Assembly: GCA_021818905.1 (NCBI GenBank)
Contig: JAKASS010000009.1
Coordinates: 1-48,764 of the forward strand
Source of the DNA: Nanobdellota archaeon
GTDB taxonomy: Archaea > Nanobdellota > Nanobdellia > Parvarchaeales > Parvarchaeaceae
Length of the DNA stretch: 48,764 nucleotides
Direction: 5' to 3'
The notes under the pieces were generated by a model that was not told where the DNA came from, did not search any database, and saw only the letters and a program-made list of their open reading frames with translations. Shown here one piece after another: positions 1 through 21,454 of this stretch. The position numbers were made by a program, and so were the translations under genes. How positions within the stretch are numbered: position 1 is the first letter of the stretch; every line of letters starts with the position of its first letter.

Positions 1-1315
1 TTTCAGGATCCCTTGAACCTACTACCGCTATAAGGGAGAGATAAGGCAGCTTACCGTGATCTATCCTCAAGGAACGGTCTTCCGTATCGTTCATAGTGAT
101 CGAATACGTCTTCCTGTCCTTCTCGCTCGAAGCGTTTACAAGGGCAGCCAATCCTTTACGGTCTTCCTTCTTCACTGAGAACAGCATAAGTATCTGGTTC
201 ATGCCCAGTCCTTTGCTTATGCCATATTCAACGGAAACATATTCATTCGCTATCCTCCGATAATCGGCGATATTTTCCCGTGTGGGGATAGGCAGTCCTT
301 CCCCTGACTTGACGTAAGCGGTCACCGCATCGAGGCTTTCCTTTCCTTCTATAAGCGTATCCAGCCCTTTCTTATGGATGGCTACAAAGTCCTTCGTATC
401 CAATAGATCGAATATATTGCTTCCGGCTCTGTTTACGATGTCGCATACTGAAATGATAGTGCCTTTATCCTTAGTATCCCGAGCAATATCCCCCAATTTA
501 TAAGCAACAGCTATGGCAGCTTCTCCCCCATATCTCCCGATGGTCCTCGCGCATTCGACAGCAGCATCTTTATCTTTAGTATCCAAAGCGATATCCCCAA
601 ATTTATAAGCAACAGCCCCGGCAGCTGCTTCTTCATATCTCCCGATGGTATTCACTATCTCCTCAAGCGACATTATCTTAGCGACATTTATCACAGTGCC
701 TTCATCCTTAGTATTCGCAGCGATATTCTCCAATCCATAAGCAACAGCTATGGCAGCTTCTCCCCCATATCTCCCGATGGTCCTTGCACATTCGACAGCG
801 GCATCTTTATCCTTAGTATCCCGAGCGATTGCCCGCAATCCCTCAGCAACAGTCTCAGCAGCTTCTCCCCCATATCTCCCGATGGTCCTTGCACATTCGA
901 CAGCGGCATCTTTATCTTTAGTATCCCAAGCGATCGCCCCCAATCTATAGGCGACAGCCCTAGCGGCTTCTCCCCTATATCTCCCAACGATATTCACTAT
1001 CTCATCAAGCGACATCATCTTAGCGAAATTTATCACAGTGCCTTTATCCTTAGTATCCCAAGCGATCGCCCCCAATCTATAGGCGACAGCCCTAGCGGCT
1101 TCTCCCCCATATCTCCCGATGGTCCTTGCACATTCGACAGCAGCATCTTTATCCTTAGTATACCGAGCGATCGCCCCCAATCTATAGGCGACAGCCCTAG
1201 CGGCTTCTCCCCCATATCTCCCGAGGGTTTTTTCTACTGCAAGCCGGACACTCGGTCCAAGCCGGTCTATAGCGGCTATCCCGACGGGATCTTGCAATAC
1301 CTCTTCGAGTCTCAT
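1..1315 (-). CDS. Repeat protein, copy 1 (N-terminal ~438 aa; 3' end runs off window). Seven tandem ~35/44-aa helical (HEAT-like) repeats
   Basis: Continuous reading on - strand from ATG at 1315 (MRLEEVLQDPVGIAAIDRLGPSVRLAVEKTLGRYGGEAARAVAYRLGAIARYTKDKDAAVECARTIG...); absent from ORF track because it is open at the edge; colinear with the complete 636-aa paralog at 9118-11028. Confidence 0.85.
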   Translation of the reverse strand, partial: MRLEEVLQDPVGIAAIDRLGPSVRLAVEKTLGRYGGEAARAVAYRLGAIARYTKDKDAAVECARTIGRYGGEAARAVAYRLGAIAWDTKDKGTVINFAKMMSLDEIVNIVGRYRGEAARAVAYRLGAIAWDTKDKDAAVECARTIGRYGGEAAETVAEGLRAIARDTKDKDAAVECARTIGRYGGEAAIAVAYGLENIAANTKDEGTVINVAKIMSLEEIVNTIGRYEEAAAGAVAYKFGDIALDTKDKDAAVECARTIGRYGGEAAIAVAYKLGDIARDTKDKGTIISVCDIVNRAGSNIFDLLDTKDFVAIHKKGLDTLIEGKESLDAVTAYVKSGEGLPIPTRENIADYRRIANEYVSVEYGISKGLGMNQILMLFSVKKEDRKGLAALVNASSEKDRKTYSITMNDTEDRSLRIDHGKLPYLSLIAVVGSRDPE

Positions 1316-1409
1316 GCATATCCATGAATATAACTATTATATAAACCCCCATTTTATAGCAGTTACTTATTATAACAATCCTCGAAAGTAATCCTACACT
1401 CCGCCCCTT

Positions 1410-1765
1410 AATGTCTTTCTGAGAGGATCGAGCGAGCACATGCTCATCACTTCTTCCGAAGACACGGACTTGACGAACCTCGCCATAGCAAAGGCCATCC
1501 GCCTTGCGGATCGGAAGAAGCGGCCGTCCGACAGCTTCCCGCGAAGATAGTCCCGCTAGTATTCCTGCGGGTCCAGCCATGGAGAATGGGGAGAAAAGGG
1601 CCTTACTTTGAGGTCGGGATGCCGCTTCAGGAAGCGCTTTGCCTTCTTCGGACTATGCGCGCGGGGATCTGTGAAGATTTACCGTCAGAAGTCCCGATCA
1701 GCAGTTTTACAAAAACGCCAACGACAATCCGCCTTTGATCCCGCTTCGGCCACTGCTTCTTGTAG
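1410..1765 (-). pseudogene. Degenerate IS630-family transposase, C-terminal part
   Basis: - strand reads DPRAHSPKKAKRFLKRHPDLKVRPFSPHSPWLDPQEY*RDYLRGKLSDGRFFRSARRMAFAMARFVKSVSSEEVMSMCSLDPLRKT, with IS630 DDE-like H.KKAK.FL..HPDL...PF.P.SP.L.P.E spacing; in-frame stop and frameshift. Confidence 0.65.
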
Positions 1766-2003: not shown

Positions 2004-2516
2004 ATGGCAAATATAAGAGTCTACCTCCCAGAAGAAACGCTTGCAAAGTTCAGAAAGGCCGCGATGTCGCGCTTTGGCTATGGAAAAGGCTCGTTAAGCA
2101 CGGCGGCGGAAGTCGCAATAAGCGGTTGGTTGGCACAGGAGGATTACGTAGAGTTATGGCTTAAAAAGATAAAGACCAACGCAGAAGACGACAAAAATGT
2201 GCTCGCAGTTTTCCTTTTTGGCAGTTATGTCAAGAATAAGACCAGTTATGGCGATGTCGATATAGCCATACTGCTTCGGAAGGATGACGTAGATTCACCG
2301 ACATTGTTAGCTGGCTATTCCGATCCGAAGGGGCTGTTTGATACTTCAATAATGAACCGCCTCCCCATGAATATACAGTCGAGAGTCATATCGGAAGGCG
2401 CTTTGCTTTACTGCGCGGATAAAGCGAAAATCTATGATTATTGCATTGACTTGATGGAGAAGTGGGGAGATTTTAAACCACGTTTCAGCAGGATACTTGC
2501 AAGAAGGGCACGATGA
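2004..2516 (+). CDS. MNT-type nucleotidyltransferase (MntA-like antitoxin) with N-terminal ribbon-helix-helix-like segment
   Basis: LFGSYVKNKTSYGDVDIAIL = GS-x9-DxD minimal nucleotidyltransferase motif; N-terminus MANIRVYLPEETLAKFRKAAMSRFGYGKGSLSTAAEVAISGWL resembles RHH/CopG-type domain; stop overlaps start of HEPN ORF. Confidence 0.8.
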   Translation: MANIRVYLPEETLAKFRKAAMSRFGYGKGSLSTAAEVAISGWLAQEDYVELWLKKIKTNAEDDKNVLAVFLFGSYVKNKTSYGDVDIAILLRKDDVDSPTLLAGYSDPKGLFDTSIMNRLPMNIQSRVISEGALLYCADKAKIYDYCIDLMEKWGDFKPRFSRILARRAR

Positions 2517-2920
2517 TAGACAAAGAGCGGGTCATAAGCTTGATTGCGGCACTTCAGGATTATCTCTCAGAACTAGAACAAAAAACCGGCACGACTATAA
2601 AAGAGTATCTTTCTGATAGGGATAAACAAAGAATAACAGAGAGGTTGCTTCAGCTAATAAGCGAGGTAGAACTCGATATAGCAGAAGAACTTTACAAGGG
2701 CTTGGAATTGAAACTCTCTTCAGAAGAAGACTCCATGCTAGAGGCACTGTCGCAGACGCTATCAAAAGATACGCTGTCAAAATTGTCAATTAGAAGAAAC
2801 CTGCGTAATCAACTTGTTCACGCATATGAATCTTACAAAAAAGAGGAGGCGTTCAGGCAGGCAAAGGACCTATCAGACGTAAGAACGTTCATATCAGCTG
2901 TAAAGAAAGTCCTGAAATAA
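2513..2920 (+). CDS. HEPN-domain protein (HepT-like toxin)
   Basis: All-helical 135 aa with RNQLVHAY = R-x4-H-x-Y motif; ATGA overlap with upstream MNT ORF. Confidence 0.8.
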   Translation: MIDKERVISLIAALQDYLSELEQKTGTTIKEYLSDRDKQRITERLLQLISEVELDIAEELYKGLELKLSSEEDSMLEALSQTLSKDTLSKLSIRRNLRNQLVHAYESYKKEEAFRQAKDLSDVRTFISAVKKVLK

Positions 2921-3316: not shown

Positions 3317-3841
3317 TCAACTTGTCTTGTTTTCTCCCTGCGTTTGGGCGGGTGGCTGCGGGTTGGCGGATAGCGGCGCCTGTTTGGCATCGGCGATCTT
3401 GGCTGTCTCGTGCTTCTCATATTCCTCCGGGTTTTTTGCCACAAGCTCCAGAAAGACATCTTTTAGCTGGAATGGCGAAAACATCAACTCAGCGCGGTTT
3501 TTCGTGGAAATATCGTACTTATGGGTGTGATGCAATACCTGTGGAGGACAGATTTCGCTGCAAAGCCCGCAAAATATGCATTTATTGAAGTCTATAGTCG
3601 GCGCCTCATCCCTGGCATTATGGGCGAAATGAACGTCCAATTTCTGCATCCGTATGGCATCGGCGGGGCATATCTTGTAGCACAGCTCGCAACCTATACA
3701 GTCGTCGAGGTCCAAGCTTAGCATCCCGCGGCTTCTTTTTGATATGGGCATCGGGACGTCGGGATACATTTTCGTGACGGGCTTTTTGATTACGTTCCCT
3801 ACAGAATAGGAGATCGCTTTCAAAGTTTCTTTGACGCTCAT
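3317..3841 (-). CDS. nuoI: NADH-quinone oxidoreductase subunit I (2x[4Fe-4S])
   Basis: Two CxxCxxCxxxCP motifs: CIGCELCYKICP and CIFCGLCSEICP; adjacent to nuoH. Confidence 0.92.
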   Translation of the reverse strand: MSVKETLKAISYSVGNVIKKPVTKMYPDVPMPISKRSRGMLSLDLDDCIGCELCYKICPADAIRMQKLDVHFAHNARDEAPTIDFNKCIFCGLCSEICPPQVLHHTHKYDISTKNRAELMFSPFQLKDVFLELVAKNPEEYEKHETAKIADAKQAPLSANPQPPAQTQGENKTS

Positions 3842-5070
3842 CAGTAGCTCCGAAAGCGACCAACCGGTCTCTTTTCGTTCTTTCTTGCTTCTACGACAAG
3901 ACGCGCTTTAGTTTTCTCCAAAACGGAGGTCTCATCTCCACAAGCGTTAATTTCCCTCCTGCCGAGGGTATTTAATCCTGTTTTCAAAATGTTTCTGGCC
4001 GCGTTTATATCCCTATCCAACTCAAGACCACAATTTTCGCATTTGAACATTCTATCTGCGAGCGTTTGGTCTTCGTCTTTCCAGCCACACTTGCTGCACT
4101 TCTTGGAGGTGTTTCTTGGGTCTACCTGTAAGATTATACTACCAGCTTCTTCCGCTTTATAGATTAACTGTCTTACAAATTCACTCCAGCGCACGTCTAA
4201 TATCTGCTTTGATAGGCGATGGTTCTTTGCTAGTCCCACTACGTTGAGTTTCTCTAGCGCTATAATTTTATATTCACTTATTAACTTGCTAGTCAAGTTG
4301 TGCAAAAAGGTTTCCCTTCGCCTTGTCGTTTTGCGGTACGCCTTAGCCAATTTAAGTATTGCTTTATACCTATTCTTTGAGCGCTTCATTTTCTTTGATA
4401 ATTGTTTATCCCTTCTTATGAGTATAGTTTCCGCTTTTTTAAGAAAATGTGGATTATTTACCACGGTCCCCTCAGAAGTGGTTATAAGTGAAGTCAAGCC
4501 AACGTCTATTCCAATTGCTTTATCTTCCGTTGGAGCTTTTCGTTTTCCCGTTATACCGTCACAAATTATTACAGCATACCAGTTTCCAGTTGGTTCTTTT
4601 TTTAACGTAAGCGTCTTTATCTTTCCATTGATATCTTTTAGGTATTTTATCCTGGATATCCCTACATTCCAAATTGATAAAGTATCTTCATCAAGTAGTT
4701 TGAAACAGTGCGGATATTGTGGAAAAGTAATGCTTTCATATCTCCGATTTGCTTTGAATCGTGGATAGCCTAAAGAATTACCACGTTTTCCTTCGTTTAA
4801 CCTTCTAAAGAAGTTCTTGAAGGCTTTGGTTATTCTTCCCGCTATTTCTTGCGAGGACTGAGCCGAGATGGATAAACCTTTTTCTTTGCGTAGCCTTAAA
4901 GATAATTCATTAAGTTTGTATCCTAATAGACTTTTATTATCTTCTTTATACGCTTTTATCGAAGCTTCTAGCAATAGATTATAAAGCGCCCTTGCTTCTT
5001 CAAGCTGTTTATCAAGGACAATGTCTTGCTCTTTTGTTACATATAGTCTGTATTTGAATGATCTTATCAT
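3841..5070 (-). CDS. tnpB: TnpB / IS605 OrfB RNA-guided nuclease-type protein
   Basis: RuvC-like AIGIDVGLTS, ALEKLNV, LDRDINAARNI; zinc ribbon CSKCG...CENCG; N-terminal MIRSFKYRLY. Confidence 0.93.
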   Translation of the reverse strand: MIRSFKYRLYVTKEQDIVLDKQLEEARALYNLLLEASIKAYKEDNKSLLGYKLNELSLRLRKEKGLSISAQSSQEIAGRITKAFKNFFRRLNEGKRGNSLGYPRFKANRRYESITFPQYPHCFKLLDEDTLSIWNVGISRIKYLKDINGKIKTLTLKKEPTGNWYAVIICDGITGKRKAPTEDKAIGIDVGLTSLITTSEGTVVNNPHFLKKAETILIRRDKQLSKKMKRSKNRYKAILKLAKAYRKTTRRRETFLHNLTSKLISEYKIIALEKLNVVGLAKNHRLSKQILDVRWSEFVRQLIYKAEEAGSIILQVDPRNTSKKCSKCGWKDEDQTLADRMFKCENCGLELDRDINAARNILKTGLNTLGRREINACGDETSVLEKTKARLVVEARKNEKRPVGRFRSY

Positions 5071-5072
5071 AT

Positions 5073-5201
5073 CTATTTTCGTGGTTTATTCCAGTACGGG
5101 CTCTTACATTTAGGACAAACAATTGGCTTCGTTACCTTGTCCGGGATCCACTCATGCGCACAACGCTCACATTTGTACCCCCTTTTTATTATTTCTGACA
5201 T
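5073..5201 (-). CDS. Small zinc-ribbon protein (42 aa) upstream of TnpB
   Basis: - strand MSEIIKRGYKCERCAHEWIPDKVTKPIVCPKCKSPYWNKPRK*; two CxxC pairs; junction TAG-AT-ATG to tnpB; not in ORF track (short). Confidence 0.75.
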   Translation of the reverse strand: MSEIIKRGYKCERCAHEWIPDKVTKPIVCPKCKSPYWNKPRK

Positions 5202-5277
5202 ATCTACGGTATATTATCTATAGTAATATAAGTCTTTATTAACCTACTTTTTTAACCTACTTTTAACCGCAAGCGTA

Positions 5278-6279
5278 TCAGAAAAACATCACCGCCCCCA
5301 CAATCAATAGGTTGACGACGGCAAGGGGGAGGAGCCAGTTGAAACCTATGTTTATCAGCTGATCTATCCTAGGCCTGTTGAAAACCCATCTAAGCGACAT
5401 CATGAAGATAGTCACTATCGACGTCTTTATCCAGAACCATAAGTAATTCGGAAGGAAAAGACCATTACCCCCTCCAAAGAACAGATATACTATCAGCATC
5501 GATATTACCAAAAGTCTTACGTATTCGGCTATGAAGAAAAGCCCATATCTTATGCCACTATATTCTATTTTCCAACCCGCCTGCAACTCCTGGGTAGCTT
5601 CTGGTATGTCAAATGGCCCGCGTTCTATGACTGCGAGAGATGATATCCCAAAGACCACAAGAGTTATCGGAAGGTAGAGTACGTACCAGACACTGCTTTG
5701 TGCGGCGGCTATCGTAGTTATATCATAGCTTCCGGACAACAATGCGACGCTTATGAAGACGATAAGCAAAGAAAGTTCGTAGGTAGTTATCTGTGCAGCT
5801 CCGCGAAAACCGCCGAGCATAGCGTATTTATTATTCTCCCCCCAGCCAGCCAAAAGCACGAGCAACGGAGAAACGGCAAGCGCAATGTAAATGAACAGCA
5901 GATTGAAAGGGACGTACAATAAGACAAGGTTTGCGTTGCCCCAAGGTATTATGAATACCATAAAGAAACCCAGAAGTGCGATGGCGATAGGCACGATATT
6001 GTAGATCAGAGGATCGATGACCTGGTTTGTAAGAAATCGCTTGCCCATTAATTTTATTACGTCCGCTACATTCTGAAGAAGCCCAAATGGACCGGTGTAT
6101 ACAGGTCCATACCTGGCCTGTATCCTTCCGGAAAGTTTCCTGTCTACCCAACCAAGGAATATCGGCACGTTTAGCGTTATCAATCCGCCTATTATGAAAA
6201 CGATAAGCCATGAACCTATCGTAGAAAGCAAAGGTGAGAAGTGTGCGGCCAAAAAATCATAGAAAAAATCGTATATCAT
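5278..6279 (-). CDS. nuoH: NADH-quinone oxidoreductase subunit H
   Basis: Multi-TM; DRKLSGRIQARYGPVYTGPFGLLQNVADVIKLMGKR and ERGPFDIPEATQELQAGWKIEYSG. Confidence 0.95.
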   Translation of the reverse strand: MIYDFFYDFLAAHFSPLLSTIGSWLIVFIIGGLITLNVPIFLGWVDRKLSGRIQARYGPVYTGPFGLLQNVADVIKLMGKRFLTNQVIDPLIYNIVPIAIALLGFFMVFIIPWGNANLVLLYVPFNLLFIYIALAVSPLLVLLAGWGENNKYAMLGGFRGAAQITTYELSLLIVFISVALLSGSYDITTIAAAQSSVWYVLYLPITLVVFGISSLAVIERGPFDIPEATQELQAGWKIEYSGIRYGLFFIAEYVRLLVISMLIVYLFFGGGNGLFLPNYLWFWIKTSIVTIFMMSLRWVFNRPRIDQLINIGFNWLLPLAVVNLLIVGAVMFF

Positions 6280-9117: not shown

Positions 9118-11028
9118 TTATTGTGGGAGTCCGTGCACATACCCTTCCACCATGTCCTCATCGGCTTCCAGATATCCTTCAGTATCGAGTCTCATCTTGG
9201 CTTTCCCTTTTCTGCATCCGAGGCTTTTAAGGTAGGCCATGAACTCCCTCGGGGTCTCGTTCACCCCGTCGGCGCTGAATATTATCTCCTTTGCGCCTTT
9301 CTCCCCGGCTCTTGCGATAAGGTCCCTGTAAACGGCATCGAATATCTGGGGTTTCCTGAAGGTGCGGTGCCCTTCTACGGAATCGACCAGGAGTCTGTCG
9401 TCTTCCATGTAGCATATGGCGCTCCCTAACGATCTGCCGCCTATACTATACCTTATAAGGCTGAATCTCTTGTCTTTACAGTAATCGTATATCCCTTCTT
9501 CATATCCTCTGGGAAGATAAACGCAGGCGATCTGTACCCTGCCGTCATAATCCAGTGGATCATTGCTTTCCACCGCTTCAAGGACGTTCTTTCCCGTGAT
9601 ACCGATCTCCCTGTGATCTGCGGCTGCGAGTACGTCGTTTATGGCCTCGTCTTTGGTGTCTTTAAGCTCTTTGATGGCTTGGTCCACGCGTCCCTCTTTT
9701 ACGTAGCCGGCTATCTTCCCGATCATGGACTTATAGCCGGAATCGAAGGCGTTCCTTGCGCGTCTGATAGCCTTTTCACCCACTATCTTGCCCAGGACGC
9801 CTCTGGCTTCCGTCTCCTTCTCTGCGTCCCTGGAGCCCACTACCGCTATAAGGGAGAGATAAGGCAGCTTACCGTGATCTATCCTCAATGAACGGTCTTC
9901 CGTATCGTTCATAGTGATCGAATACGTCTTCCTGTCCTTCTCGCTTGAAGCGTTTACAAGGGCAGCCAATCCTTTACGGTCTTCCTTCTTAACCGAAAAC
10001 AGCATAAGTATCTGGTTCATGCCCAGTCCTTTGCTTATGCCATATTCAACGGAAACATATCCGTTCGCCATCCTCCGATAATCGGCGATATTCTCTTGGG
10101 TCGGGATGGGCAGTCCTTCCCCGGACTTGACGTAAGCGGCCACCGCATCGAGGCTTTCCTTTCCTTCTATAAGCGTATCCAGCCCCTTCTTATGGATGGT
10201 TATGAAGTCTTGCGCACACAATAAATCGAGTACATTGTTTCCGGCCCTGTTTACGATGTCGCATGCAGAAACGACGGTACCTTTATCCTTGGTATTCCAA
10301 GCGATTATTCCCAACCCATAAGCGACAGCTATGGCAGCTTCTCCCCCATATCTCCCGATCGTCCTTGCACATTCGGCAGCAGCATCTTTATCTTTAATAT
10401 TCGCAGCAATCTCCCCTAATCCATAAGCAACAGCCCCGGCAGCCTTTTCTTCATATCTCCCAATGGCATTCACTATCTCCTCAAGCGACATTATCTTAGC
10501 GACATTCATCACAGTGTCGTTATCTTTAGTATTCGCAGCGATATTCTCCAATCCATAAGCAACAGCCCTCGCAGCTTCTTCTCTGCATCTCCCTATGGTC
10601 TTTGCACATTCAACAACCGCATCTTTATCCGTAGTATACCAAGCGATATTCCCCAATCTATAAGCAATGTCCCCAGCAGCTTCTCCTCCATATCTCCCGA
10701 TCGTCCTTGCGCATTCGGCAGCGGCATCTTTATCTTTAGTATCCAAAGCGATATTCCCCAATCTATAAGCAATGGCCCCAGCAGCTTCTCCTTCGTATCT
10801 CCCAATGGTATTCACTATCTCCTCAAGCGACATAATGTTAGCGACATTCATCACAGTGTCTTTATCCTTAATATTCGCAGCAATCCCCCACAACCTATTA
10901 GCAACAGCCCCAGCAGCTTCTCCCCCATATCTATCAATGGTTTTTTCTACTGCAAGCCGGACACTTAGTTCAAGTCGGTCTATGGCGGCTATCCTAACGG
11001 GGTCTTGCAGTACCTCTTCAAGCTTCAT
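9118..11028 (-). CDS. Repeat protein, copy 2 (complete, 636 aa): six 35/44-aa helical repeats, a middle domain and a possibly GNAT-like C-terminal domain
   Basis: Tandem RYGGEAAGAVAYRLGNIAxxTKDKDAAAECARTIG units; C-terminus GRSLGSAICYMEDDRLLVDSVEGHRTFRKPQIFDAVYRDLIARAGEKGAKEIIFS. Confidence 0.88.
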   Translation of the reverse strand: MKLEEVLQDPVRIAAIDRLELSVRLAVEKTIDRYGGEAAGAVANRLWGIAANIKDKDTVMNVANIMSLEEIVNTIGRYEGEAAGAIAYRLGNIALDTKDKDAAAECARTIGRYGGEAAGDIAYRLGNIAWYTTDKDAVVECAKTIGRCREEAARAVAYGLENIAANTKDNDTVMNVAKIMSLEEIVNAIGRYEEKAAGAVAYGLGEIAANIKDKDAAAECARTIGRYGGEAAIAVAYGLGIIAWNTKDKGTVVSACDIVNRAGNNVLDLLCAQDFITIHKKGLDTLIEGKESLDAVAAYVKSGEGLPIPTQENIADYRRMANGYVSVEYGISKGLGMNQILMLFSVKKEDRKGLAALVNASSEKDRKTYSITMNDTEDRSLRIDHGKLPYLSLIAVVGSRDAEKETEARGVLGKIVGEKAIRRARNAFDSGYKSMIGKIAGYVKEGRVDQAIKELKDTKDEAINDVLAAADHREIGITGKNVLEAVESNDPLDYDGRVQIACVYLPRGYEEGIYDYCKDKRFSLIRYSIGGRSLGSAICYMEDDRLLVDSVEGHRTFRKPQIFDAVYRDLIARAGEKGAKEIIFSADGVNETPREFMAYLKSLGCRKGKAKMRLDTEGYLEADEDMVEGYVHGLPQ

Positions 11029-11271: not shown

Positions 11272-12238
11272 GGCTCTGTAGAAATCCTCTAAAGTAAGCA
11301 CCTCTTTAATTATTATAGTAAATAAACAAAAAAAGAGGTGCTTATGAATAAAAATGGGAGTCCTTACTATAAAAGATTTGCGTCCATCGTATTGGGCATA
11401 GCGCGGAGGGCGTTGTCGCCCTTCTCGAACAAGTTCTCCAAGAAGACGTACACGCAGCCGCAGCTTGCTGCGTGCATCTGCCTGATGAAACACGAGAGAA
11501 AGCCTTATCGGGACGTCGTAGACGAGCTGGAAGAGCTCAAGGGATTGTTTGACTTCGATAAAGTCCCTCATTATACGACACTGCAGAAATTCTTCAAACG
11601 GATACCGCTGCGAGTATGGGATGCGATGCTGTCCTTCGCGTTTAGACTGTTCGGGATAAGAAGAATGGACGCCGCCATAGACTCCACTGGATACGATGAA
11701 CGAAACGCTTCCTATCACTACCTGTGGAGGATAGGAGAAGAACTGCGTAGAAAGGTGTTTACCAAGCATTCCATCGTCGTAGACCCGAAGACAAAAGCGA
11801 TAGCGGCTTCTTCCTCCAACCGAAGGTATGAAAGCGACAATAAGACTTTCACACCGCTCATGAAGAAAGCCGCCGAGATAGTGAAGATCGATAAGATACT
11901 GGCTGACAAAGGATACGATTCGGAGAGAAATCATAGGTTCGCAAGAGAGCGTCTTCACGCAGAATCGATCATTCCTGCAAGGAATGAAGACGTTCCCGTA
12001 TGGAAAACGAAAGGCAGATGGAGGAAGCTGATGAAGACGGACTTTCCACTCGACGAGTACCACAAACGAAGCATCGTGGAGACCGTCGACTCCGTGGAGA
12101 AGAGGAAGTTCGGCTCCACCTTGAGCAGCAAGCTGCATCCGGACAAGCTGAAGGAGGTGAAGGTGATCGACGTAATCTACGACATCCGGCGATGCATACA
12201 GCTTGCTTATATTGTTATCATAGGATTTCTACAGAGCC
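11272..12238 (+). mobile_element. IS5-like insertion sequence, copy A (967 bp)
   Basis: TIR GGCTCTGTAGAAATCCT at 11272 and inverted ...aggatttctacagagcc ending 12238; perfect 9-bp TSD aagtcttac at 11263-11271 and 12239-12247. Confidence 0.95.
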
Positions 12239-12276
12239 AAGTCTTACTATTCAAATGTCCAATGGTCTCAATGTAG
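11344..12276 (+). CDS. IS5-like DDE transposase, copy A (alternative GTG start 11338); stop lies outside the IS
   Basis: AAIDSTGYDERN, LADKGYDSERN, HKRSIVETVDSVEKRKFGS; ORF reads through the right TIR (IIGFLQS). Confidence 0.9.
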   Translation: MNKNGSPYYKRFASIVLGIARRALSPFSNKFSKKTYTQPQLAACICLMKHERKPYRDVVDELEELKGLFDFDKVPHYTTLQKFFKRIPLRVWDAMLSFAFRLFGIRRMDAAIDSTGYDERNASYHYLWRIGEELRRKVFTKHSIVVDPKTKAIAASSSNRRYESDNKTFTPLMKKAAEIVKIDKILADKGYDSERNHRFARERLHAESIIPARNEDVPVWKTKGRWRKLMKTDFPLDEYHKRSIVETVDSVEKRKFGSTLSSKLHPDKLKEVKVIDVIYDIRRCIQLAYIVIIGFLQSQVLLFKCPMVSM

Positions 12277-18335: not shown

Positions 18336-19302
18336 GGCTCTGTAGAAATCCTCTAAAGTAAGCACCTCTTTAATTATTATAGTAAATAAACAAAAAAAGA
18401 GGTGCTTATGAATAAAAATGGGAGTCCTTACTATAAAAGATTTGCGTCCATCGTATTGGGCATAGCGCGGAGGGCGTTGTCGCCCTTCTCGAACAAGTTC
18501 TCCAAGAAGACGTACACGCAGCCGCAGCTTGCTGCGTGCATCTGCCTGATGAAACACGAGAGAAAGCCTTATCGGGACGTCGTAGACGAGCTGGAAGAGC
18601 TCAAGGGATTGTTTGACTTCGATAAAGTCCCTCATTATACGACACTGCAGAAATTCTTCAAACGGATACCGCTGCGAGTATGGGACGCGATGCTGTCCTT
18701 CGCATTCGGACTGTTCGGGATAAGAAGAATGGATGCAGCGATAGACTCCACTGGATACGATGAACGAAACGCTTCCTATCACTACCTGTGGAGGATAGGA
18801 GAAGAACTGCGTAGAAAGGTGTTTACCAAGCATTCCATCGTCGTAGACCCGAAGACGGAAGCGATAGCCGTTTCCTCCTCTAACCGAAGGTATGAAAGCG
18901 ACAATAAGACCTTCAGACCGCTCATGAAGAAAGCCGCTGAAATAGTAAAGATCGATAAGATACTGGCTGATAAAGGATACGATTCGGAGAGAAACCACAG
19001 GTTTTCGAGGGAGAGACTCCATGCAGAATCGATCATTCCTGCAAGGAATGAAGGCGTTCCGATATGGAAGACCAGGGGAAGATGGAGGAAGCTGATGAAA
19101 GCATCTTTTCCACTTGACGAGTACCATAAACGAAGCATCGTGGAGACTGTCAACTCCGTGGAGAAGAGGAAGTTCGGCTCCACCCTGGGCAGCAAACTGC
19201 ATTTGAACAAGCTGAAGGAGGTGAAGGTGATCGATGTGGTCTACGACATCCGGCGATTCATACAGCTTGCTTATATTATTATCATAGGATTTCTACAGAG
19301 CC
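18336..19302 (+). mobile_element. IS5-like insertion sequence, copy B (967 bp), no TSD
   Basis: Same TIRs and length as copy A; flanks tcttagttt / catttgatg do not match. Confidence 0.95.
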
Positions 19303-19517
19303 CATTTGATGATGCCAGTCTTTTCTTTACCGTAATAGGCGTTACTTATGGCGTCATGTCCGCATTTGCTATAAATGATACAGATAAAGCGCTAGATCAA
19401 CTAAGGGACGCATTTGGAAAAGAAGTGAGTTCATTAAAGTCAATCTATCTCCTTTCAAAAAGTTTATCAGATAAAATAGCATTCAAAAATCTGCAACAGC
19501 ATAGTAGAATATTGTAA
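18408..19517 (+). CDS. IS5-like DDE transposase, copy B, read in-frame into flanking host sequence (alternative start 18402)
   Basis: Colinear with copy A up to GFLQS, then PFDDASLFFTVIGVTYGVMSAFAINDT... from host DNA. Confidence 0.88.
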   Translation: MNKNGSPYYKRFASIVLGIARRALSPFSNKFSKKTYTQPQLAACICLMKHERKPYRDVVDELEELKGLFDFDKVPHYTTLQKFFKRIPLRVWDAMLSFAFGLFGIRRMDAAIDSTGYDERNASYHYLWRIGEELRRKVFTKHSIVVDPKTEAIAVSSSNRRYESDNKTFRPLMKKAAEIVKIDKILADKGYDSERNHRFSRERLHAESIIPARNEGVPIWKTRGRWRKLMKASFPLDEYHKRSIVETVNSVEKRKFGSTLGSKLHLNKLKEVKVIDVVYDIRRFIQLAYIIIIGFLQSPFDDASLFFTVIGVTYGVMSAFAINDTDKALDQLRDAFGKEVSSLKSIYLLSKSLSDKIAFKNLQQHSRIL

Positions 19518-20359: not shown

Positions 20360-21454
20360 TATAGATAATTGCGTAGTTTATAGCTCATATTTATATAGTC
20401 CATACTGTAATACTATATTATGGAACACGGTATCGGGCGTCAATTACCACATGAAGTCCTGGAACGCTATCGTTTCAGGGCGATTGAACTACGAAAAAAA
20501 GACTGGAAAGTCTCAGAGATCGCCGAGGCATTTGGCGTAAATAGGAGGGCAGTAACGAGATGGTCCACGAATTATAGAAGAGGGGGCCGAGAATCATTGA
20601 AAAGCAAGAAGGCGCCCGGACCCCGGCTGAGACTCTCGGCAAAAGAAATGACAAGGGTCCTAGCCAGCCTTAAACTTCCGGCCACTGATTTTGGCTTTGA
20701 AACGCCGCTTTGGACGTGCAAAAGAGTCGGATATCTGATCCAGAAACTAACGGGGAAAGATCTGGACAACTCAAATGTGTGGAGACTGCTCAAAAGACTG
20801 GGCCTTACGAATCAAAAAGGAGAACGTAGGGCATCGGAACAAGATCCAAAAGAAACGAAAAGGTGGTCGAAGGAGGGATGGCCTAAGATCCTCGCCAAGG
20901 CAAAACGTTGGCGGGCTATGATATATTTTCAGGATGAAGCGGGGGTCTCAGTAAATGCCGTGATGGGCAAAACATGGGCGCCAAAAGGGAAGACTCCGAT
21001 AGTAAGATTATCCGGTAACCGCGGCGGCATCTGCGTCTCCTCAGCAATAAGCCCGGCGGGCCGATTGGTCTTTAGGGTGGAAAGGAAAACGGTCGATCCC
21101 ACTACGTTTATCGACTTCTTGGATAAGATCAGGAAGCATCACAAAAGCCGCAAGGTCATCGTCATAGCCGATAGGGCCCCGCCGCATATCGCGGGCAAAG
21201 TCAAAGAGTATGCAGAGAAGAACAAAAAGTCGTTTGCGATATACTACCTGCCGCCGTACTCGCCGGAATTGAATCCCGACGAAAGCGTTTGGGGCTATCT
21301 GAAGAAGAACAAACTGAAGGCGCATCAGGCAAAATCAAAAGCGGAATTGAAGGACATTACGATTTCTGCTATGAAAAGCATACAAAGACAACCTACACTT
21401 TTGACGTCCTTTTTTTATAATATTAATGGGCTATAAGTAGCGCAATTATCTATA
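20360..21454 (+). mobile_element. IS630-family insertion sequence, apparently intact
   Basis: Imperfect TIR TATAGATAATTGCG(TAG/CTA)(T/C)TTATAGC(T/C)CAT at both ends, flanked by TA. Confidence 0.85.
20420..21436 (+). CDS. IS630-family transposase
   Basis: N-terminal HTH KVSEIAEAFGVNRRAVTRW; DDE region YFQDEAGVSV, VIADRAPPH, YLPPYSPELNPDESVWGYLKKNKL. Confidence 0.95.
   Translation: MEHGIGRQLPHEVLERYRFRAIELRKKDWKVSEIAEAFGVNRRAVTRWSTNYRRGGRESLKSKKAPGPRLRLSAKEMTRVLASLKLPATDFGFETPLWTCKRVGYLIQKLTGKDLDNSNVWRLLKRLGLTNQKGERRASEQDPKETKRWSKEGWPKILAKAKRWRAMIYFQDEAGVSVNAVMGKTWAPKGKTPIVRLSGNRGGICVSSAISPAGRLVFRVERKTVDPTTFIDFLDKIRKHHKSRKVIVIADRAPPHIAGKVKEYAEKNKKSFAIYYLPPYSPELNPDESVWGYLKKNKLKAHQAKSKAELKDITISAMKSIQRQPTLLTSFFYNINGL

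What the first reader, a model, noticed from the sequence alone, without database searches (positions are those of the whole stretch)
3841..5201. TnpB cassette embedded in the nuo operon and translationally coupled to nuoI
Seen: the TnpB stop and nuoI start share a base (TGATG), leaving no room for a normal IS605 right end between them. The RuvC-type residues (GIDVGL, ALEKL, DRDIN) and both zinc ribbons look intact. No TnpA is present. The cassette has its own box-A-like ttatatta ahead of the zinc-ribbon gene. Inference: a fixed, possibly domesticated TnpB. If its omega RNA still derives from the 3' end of tnpB, the guide would run into nuoI sequence.
Basis: partly seen in the sequence, partly recalled or inferred. 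Interest (0 to 1): 0.7.

Follow-up and report, generated by a model that had tools for sequence, protein, structure and literature searches.

The report
TnpB nuclease captured by DDE transposon
In a small-genome archaeon related to Parvarchaeota, the gene for a guide-RNA DNA cutter (TnpB) sits between two respiratory genes as the right-hand remnant of a cut-and-paste transposon with inverted-repeat ends, a kind of carrier described for its eukaryotic cousins (Fanzor) but not, in the papers I could search, for prokaryotic TnpB.

Summary
In detail: an intact TnpB (409 aa) and a 42-aa zinc-ribbon gene lie between nuoH and nuoI, and the TnpB stop overlaps the nuoI start (TGATG). Domestication is not supported: all 21 relatives with this locus lack the insertion, including one with 90% identical NuoI. 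In place of an IS605 right end, TnpB runs into a 15-bp inverted-repeat end, CTTTCGGAGCTACTG; its stop TGA is the element's terminal TG plus the first target base, here the A of nuoI's ATG. The closest TnpB (62%) has this repeat at both ends. It and two deleted derivatives have 5-bp target duplications, two of the three checked against empty sites in relatives. The same ends and 5-bp duplications bound 7.6-7.7-kb transposons of the genus with an ISH3-like DDE transposase, and the zinc-ribbon gene has homologues beside such transposases. The window copy has lost its left repeat and transposase. About 60 of 68 TnpB loci compared have ordinary IS605 right ends. So this is an archaeal TnpB taken up by a DDE transposon family, parallel to eukaryotic Fanzors. 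Its guide RNA, cutting activity and mobilisation are inferred, not shown.

The parts
3317..3841 (-). nuoI (host), downstream flank; its ATG forms the first bases of the expected target duplication
   Evidence: Pfam Fer4; orthologues in 21 relatives directly follow nuoH
3837..3841 (-). right copy of the inferred 5-bp target duplication, ATGAG (left copy not found)
   Evidence: directly after the right repeat; 5-bp duplications shown for L037, L178, L181/L164
3842..3856 (-). right terminal inverted repeat CTTTCGGAGCTACTG, coding for the TnpB C-terminus; its last TG plus target A make the stop codon
   Evidence: 0-1 mismatch to ends of DDE transposons in the same genome and genus
3841..5070 (-). 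tnpB, RNA-guided nuclease of the OMEGA type, RuvC residues D189/E273/D354 intact
3842..3990 (-). candidate omega RNA scaffold (3' part of tnpB, ending in a hairpin whose 3' arm is the repeat's CUUUC)
   Evidence: fold z=-2.4; analogous hairpin GAAAGUG/CACUUUC in L037; expression not tested
5073..5201 (-). 42-aa zinc-ribbon gene; homologues beside DDE transposases of the genus; family widespread in the class
5209..5261 (-). upstream region matching the transposase/zinc-ribbon intergenic region of the G028 transposase locus
   Evidence: local alignment score 44 vs 24.7 +/- 4.7 in shuffles, 1 of 500 as high
5277..5278 (.). left junction: nuoH stop joined to transposon-derived DNA; left repeat, left duplication and transposase absent
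   Evidence: comparison with the G028 empty site; no left repeat found
5278..6279 (-). nuoH (host), upstream flank, full length
   Evidence: Pfam NADHdh; 333 aa aligned to its end in G028

Best explanation
The cassette is the right part of a non-autonomous DDE (ISH3-like) transposon that carries TnpB. The transposon family has 15-bp inverted repeats (CAGTAGTTCCGAAAG...CTTTCGGAACTACTG) and makes 5-bp target duplications. It inserted so that its right repeat abuts nuoI's ATG; its left repeat and transposase region were later lost, leaving zinc ribbon + TnpB + right repeat. Inferred: the omega RNA is made from the 3' end of tnpB through the repeat, with the guide read from the flank (the nuoI start), so TnpB would cut uninserted nuoH-nuoI alleles and favour retention of the element by repair from the inserted copy, as known for IS605 TnpB. 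Shown: the ends, the duplications in relatives, the ends shared with DDE transposons, the intact catalytic residues. Inferred: RNA, guide, cleavage, retention, the order of events at the left end, and mobilisation in trans by the ISH3-like transposase.
For: (1) 21 relatives have nuoH-nuoI without the insert; G028 empty site TTTTTCTGACATGAG. (2) G004 TnpB element (62% identity): both repeats (left 2 mismatches, right none), duplication AAGAC/AAGAT, 1282 bp, between pyrH and topA; relatives empty there. (3) G018 deleted derivative: both ends (left one lacks a base), duplication ATGTA/ATGTA at a DUF211 start codon; relatives empty. (4) G023 74-bp derivative: duplication AAATA/AAATA. (5) Same ends on DDE transposons: own genome 7573 bp, CTTCA/CTTCA, and G014 7693 bp, ACTCA/ACTCA; transposase ISH3-like, E=2e-46. 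(6) Zinc-ribbon homologues beside such transposases and matching upstream DNA. (7) In 318,128 positions of the TnpB loci of the class only two match the transposon right end with at most 1 mismatch: the window and G004 TnpB ends. (8) Control: 60 of 68 assessable TnpB loci have an IS605-type TTCAC/GTCAC right end; the window and G004 do not. (9) These two TnpBs form one clade, 100/100, among IS605 TnpBs.
Against: The window copy itself has no recognisable left repeat and no left duplication. Only one full-length TnpB element with both repeats is in the data (G004), with one mismatch in its duplication; the others are internally deleted. No single element holds both TnpB and the DDE transposase. 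The transposase scores below NCBIfam's ISH3 cut-off (158.6 vs 225 bits). The zinc-ribbon family is widespread in the class (98 of 378 genomes), so its presence alone is weak evidence. Omega RNA, TAM and cleavage are untested.
Confidence: 0.8

Rival explanations
1. Ordinary IS605/IS1341-type TnpB insertion whose right end has decayed or been trimmed at the stop codon.
For: TnpB is nested among IS605 TnpBs in the tree; IS605-type TnpB copies are common in the genus.
Against: Three relatives' elements have inverted ends and 5-bp duplications, which IS605 elements do not make; the end sequence equals DDE transposon ends; no Y1 TnpA in the genome.
Confidence: 0.07
2. Domesticated TnpB kept in the nuo operon and translationally coupled to nuoI for a host function.
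For: Intact RuvC residues and TGATG overlap; left end lost, so probably immobile.
Against: Absent at this site in 21 relatives; the same TGATG junction occurs in an independent, degraded copy at another gene.
Confidence: 0.05
3. The TnpB cassette fused by chance with a pre-existing short repeat element (MITE) and merely reads into its end; TnpB is a passenger with no functional tie to the transposon.
For: The same ends exist without TnpB on many elements in the genus.
Against: Five loci share the tnpB 3' end joined directly to the repeat, including small derivatives with their own duplications; the fused unit itself moved.
Confidence: 0.08

Closest known systems
Fanzor1 and Fanzor2* nucleases in eukaryotic DDE transposons (PMC3627910, PMC10711439)
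   Same: TnpB-type nuclease carried by a cut-and-paste transposon with inverted repeats and short target duplications; often non-autonomous; guide RNA scaffold predicted to include the terminal repeat
   Different: Those are eukaryotic or viral and phylogenetically Fanzor; this is an archaeal TnpB nested among IS605 TnpBs, on an ISH3-like transposon
IS200/IS605 (IS1341 group) TnpB elements, e.g. ISDra2 TnpB (PDB 8bf8, 8exa)
   Same: Protein family and motifs (E=4e-52 to ISDra2 TnpB); omega RNA expected at the 3' end of tnpB
   Different: No Y1 TnpA, no hairpin plus TTCAC right end; inverted repeats and 5-bp duplications instead
ISH3 family DDE transposons
   Same: Transposase similarity (NF033541, E=2e-46); repeat length and duplication length agree with that family as I know it
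   Different: Score below the family cut-off; full elements here are 7.6-7.7 kb with cargo; TnpB elements lack the transposase
TldR, nuclease-dead TnpB regulators (own knowledge)
   Same: TnpB homologue next to a host operon gene
   Different: All three RuvC acidic residues are present here

Membership tests
TnpB (OMEGA RNA-guided nuclease) | TnpB domains with RuvC D/E/D residues and zinc ribbon | tested here: met
TnpB (OMEGA RNA-guided nuclease) | omega RNA from the 3' end of tnpB and guided cleavage | not testable with these tools
   only folds; no Rfam match
IS200/IS605 element | Y1 transposase TnpA in the element or elsewhere in the genome | tested here: not met
   none in the own genome; TnpB-only members of the family exist, so this alone does not exclude it
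IS200/IS605 element | subterminal hairpin plus TTCAC/GTCAC-type right end | tested here: not met
   absent here, present in 60 of 68 TnpB loci
IS200/IS605 element | no terminal inverted repeats and no target duplication | tested here: not met
   relatives of this TnpB subfamily have both
ISH3-like DDE transposon of this genus | 15-bp terminal inverted repeats at both ends | tested here: inconclusive
   right repeat present in the window, left missing; both present in G004
ISH3-like DDE transposon of this genus | 5-bp target duplication | tested here: inconclusive
   present in L037 (1 mismatch), L178, L181/L164, L184, L299; left copy absent in the window
ISH3-like DDE transposon of this genus | own DDE transposase | tested here: not met
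   TnpB elements lack it; related transposases lie elsewhere in the same genome
TldR (nuclease-dead TnpB) | loss of RuvC catalytic residues | tested here: not met
   D189, E273, D354 present

The most novel reading that the evidence does not exclude
An archaeal DDE (ISH3-like) transposon family has taken over a TnpB/omega-RNA module and made its terminal repeat serve as the end of both the tnpB reading frame and the omega-RNA scaffold, using guided cutting of the empty site to keep its copies: a prokaryotic counterpart of Fanzor-carrying DDE transposons, reached independently from an IS605 TnpB.
Probability: 0.45. Interest if true: 0.75.

Novelty: new variant of a known kind. Interest (0 to 1): 0.58.

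Why it matters
TnpB in prokaryotes is described as part of elements moved by HUH (IS605) or serine (IS607) transposases, while eukaryotic Fanzors were captured by DDE transposons. A TnpB bounded by the repeats and target duplications of an archaeal DDE transposon shows that such a capture also happened in prokaryotes. It gives a direct test of whether guided cutting helps a cut-and-paste transposon persist, apart from the IS605 peel-and-paste mechanism. It also shows that a TnpB gene overlapping a host start codon need not mean domestication.

Tried and rejected
Domestication: rejected by empty sites in all relatives with the locus. Standard IS605 end: looked for after TnpB, absent. Rfam search of 3500-5400: no match. 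Relatives in viral contigs: none; plasmid records: none. A de novo repeat-plus-duplication scan around all TnpB loci gave noise scores of 16-17, similar to G004's 17, so the case rests on the shared end sequence, the repeated duplications and the empty sites, not on that scan. A pattern search for further left ends gave mostly chance matches. The window's left end aligned to the left ends of TnpB elements no better than shuffles. A TAM could not be derived: the bases before the duplications show no clear common motif. dN/dS between window and G004 TnpB is saturated (dN 0.28; third codon positions 60% different, second 20%), in line with purifying selection since divergence but without a date. 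Novelty was checked only in the open PMC library; preprints and most subscription journals are not in it.

Full report
What is there. On the minus strand the order is nuoH (6279-5278), a 42-aa zinc-ribbon gene (5201-5073), tnpB (5070-3841) and nuoI (3841-3317). TnpB is a full-length, uninterrupted 409-aa member of the guided_TnpB family with the RuvC residues D189, E273 and D354 and both CxxC pairs of the zinc ribbon; it matches ISDra2 TnpB at E=4e-52. The genome (944,665 bases, 25 contigs) has only this complete TnpB plus weaker fragments and no Y1 transposase. The genus includes 'Candidatus Parvarchaeota archaeon UBA573' (G004 has the same TnpB at the same contig position as DAPE01000011.1).

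The site in relatives. In 21 genomes of the family with a nuoI orthologue, nuoH is followed directly by nuoI with no insertion. The nearest relative, G028 (NuoI 90%, NuoH 89% identical), reads TTTTTCTGA-C-ATGAGTGCG at the junction. The insertion is therefore specific to the window's lineage, not a conserved operon member.

The end of the element. TnpB of G004 (62% identical) lies between pyrH and topA. Both TnpB genes end in the same DNA, CTTTCGGARCTACTG followed by A, and the stop codon TGA is that TG plus the A. A search for this end found it repeatedly in the genus, about twice as often as its reversed control, in many cases next to what looks like the 3' end of a tRNA gene (ARAGORN confirms one, a tRNA-Leu beside L174). 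In G004 the mirror image, CATTAGTTCCAAAAG, begins 44 bp before the tnpB start, and the two ends are flanked by AAGAC and AAGAT. Relatives have pyrH-topA without the element. In G018 an internally deleted copy has both ends and a perfect ATGTA duplication; relatives carry a single ATGTA there, at the start codon of a DUF211-like gene. In G023 a 74-bp derivative has AAATA on both sides. G022 has a further right end with tnpB 3' sequence. Inverted repeats with 5-bp target duplications are the mark of a DDE transposase and not of IS605.

Which transposon. The same ends bound a 7573-bp transposon in the window's own genome (contig C3, 15154-22726; duplication CTTCA/CTTCA) and a 7693-bp one in G014 (ACTCA/ACTCA). 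They carry a DDE_Tnp_1 transposase whose best NCBIfam match is the ISH3 family (E=2e-46, below that model's cut-off), an HTH protein and, judged from sequence only, adenine-methyltransferase-like genes. The window's zinc-ribbon gene has homologues directly beside such transposases, in divergent orientation, in the own genome and in G028, and the DNA before it matches the G028 transposase/zinc-ribbon intergenic region better than 499 of 500 shuffles. The zinc-ribbon family is widespread in the class and often precedes DNA methyltransferases, so it is a general companion of mobile genes and only supporting evidence.

The window copy. Its right repeat differs from the transposon end by one base. 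After it comes ATGAG, the start of nuoI. On the left, the nuoH stop is followed by DNA that belongs upstream of the zinc ribbon; neither the left repeat nor a left ATGAG is found. The simplest reading is an insertion at the nuoI start followed by loss of the left duplication, left repeat and transposase region. This copy is probably immobile.

Controls. Among 68 TnpB loci with an assessable 3' flank, 60 have a TTCAC/GTCAC-type IS605 end and several of the rest show a variant of it, whereas the window and G004 copies have none. The motif and 330-nt stretch used would hit by chance in roughly a fifth of loci (my estimate), so 60 of 68 is far above chance. Of 318,128 positions in the TnpB loci of the class, two match the transposon end with at most one mismatch, and these are the window and G004 TnpB ends. 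The window and G004 TnpBs are sisters (100/100) in a tree of IS605-type TnpBs, so an IS605 TnpB was probably taken over once.

How it probably works (inference). As in IS605, the 3' part of the tnpB transcript would be the omega RNA and the guide would be the flanking DNA, here the start of nuoI. A TnpB loaded with it could cut uninserted nuoH-nuoI alleles and so favour the inserted one. The 3' end folds into a hairpin whose 3' arm is the repeat's CTTTC in both the window and G004; support is modest (z -2.4 and -1.1). In Fanzor1 and Fanzor2* elements of eukaryotes the terminal repeat and the duplication are predicted to be part of the RNA scaffold (PMC10711439), and the same may hold here.

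The sequence observations hold. The TGATG overlap is a by-product of insertion: the G018 copy has the same TGATG at an unrelated gene. 'Fixed' may be right in the plain sense that the left end is gone; 'domesticated' is not supported.

Limits. One full-length two-ended TnpB element, one one-ended copy and three deleted derivatives are a small sample. The genomes are fragmented assemblies. RNA, cutting and mobilisation are untested. That prokaryotic TnpB on DDE transposons has not been reported rests on an open-access library without preprints.

Noticed in passing
L184 6155-13727 (G000:C3 15154-22726); L299 334-8026 (G014:C22); L174 1020-7391 (G000:C7): 6.4-7.7-kb ISH3-like transposons with 15-bp repeats, ending beside tRNA-like sequences (one tRNA-Leu confirmed), carrying methyltransferase-like genes or a helicase with PD-(D/E)XK nuclease, and HTH proteins (one with a weak TnsD match). 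They look like tRNA-adjacent, defence-carrying DDE transposons.
   Followed up: partly
L299 314-340 (G014:C22): Another transposon right end stands directly before the left end with the same ACTCA between them: apparent tandem insertion reusing one target.
   Followed up: no
window 5073-5201; L248-L276: A small zinc-ribbon protein family (about 42-90 aa) is present in 98 of 378 genomes of the class, often just upstream of DNA methyltransferases or near transposases; the window member matched no Pfam family.
   Followed up: partly
window 2004-2920 (+): Nucleotidyltransferase (MNT-like) and HepT-like pair, a probable toxin-antitoxin module.
   Followed up: no
window 11338-12276 and 18402-19517; L184 18163-19092: Near-identical copies of a DDE_Tnp_1 insertion sequence, at least three in this genome.
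   Followed up: no
window 20420-21436 (+): ORF resembling an IS630-type transposase (judged by eye from its sequence).
   Followed up: no
window 748-1580 and 9118-11028 (-): Protein with tandem repeats (IGRYGGEAAGAVAYRLG...) and related, apparently frame-broken stretches at the start of the window.
   Followed up: no
L037, L178, L179, L181 and window right ends: All five TnpB-type right ends are followed by A, which completes the TGA stop; whether this is target preference or selection for a stop codon is open.
   Followed up: no
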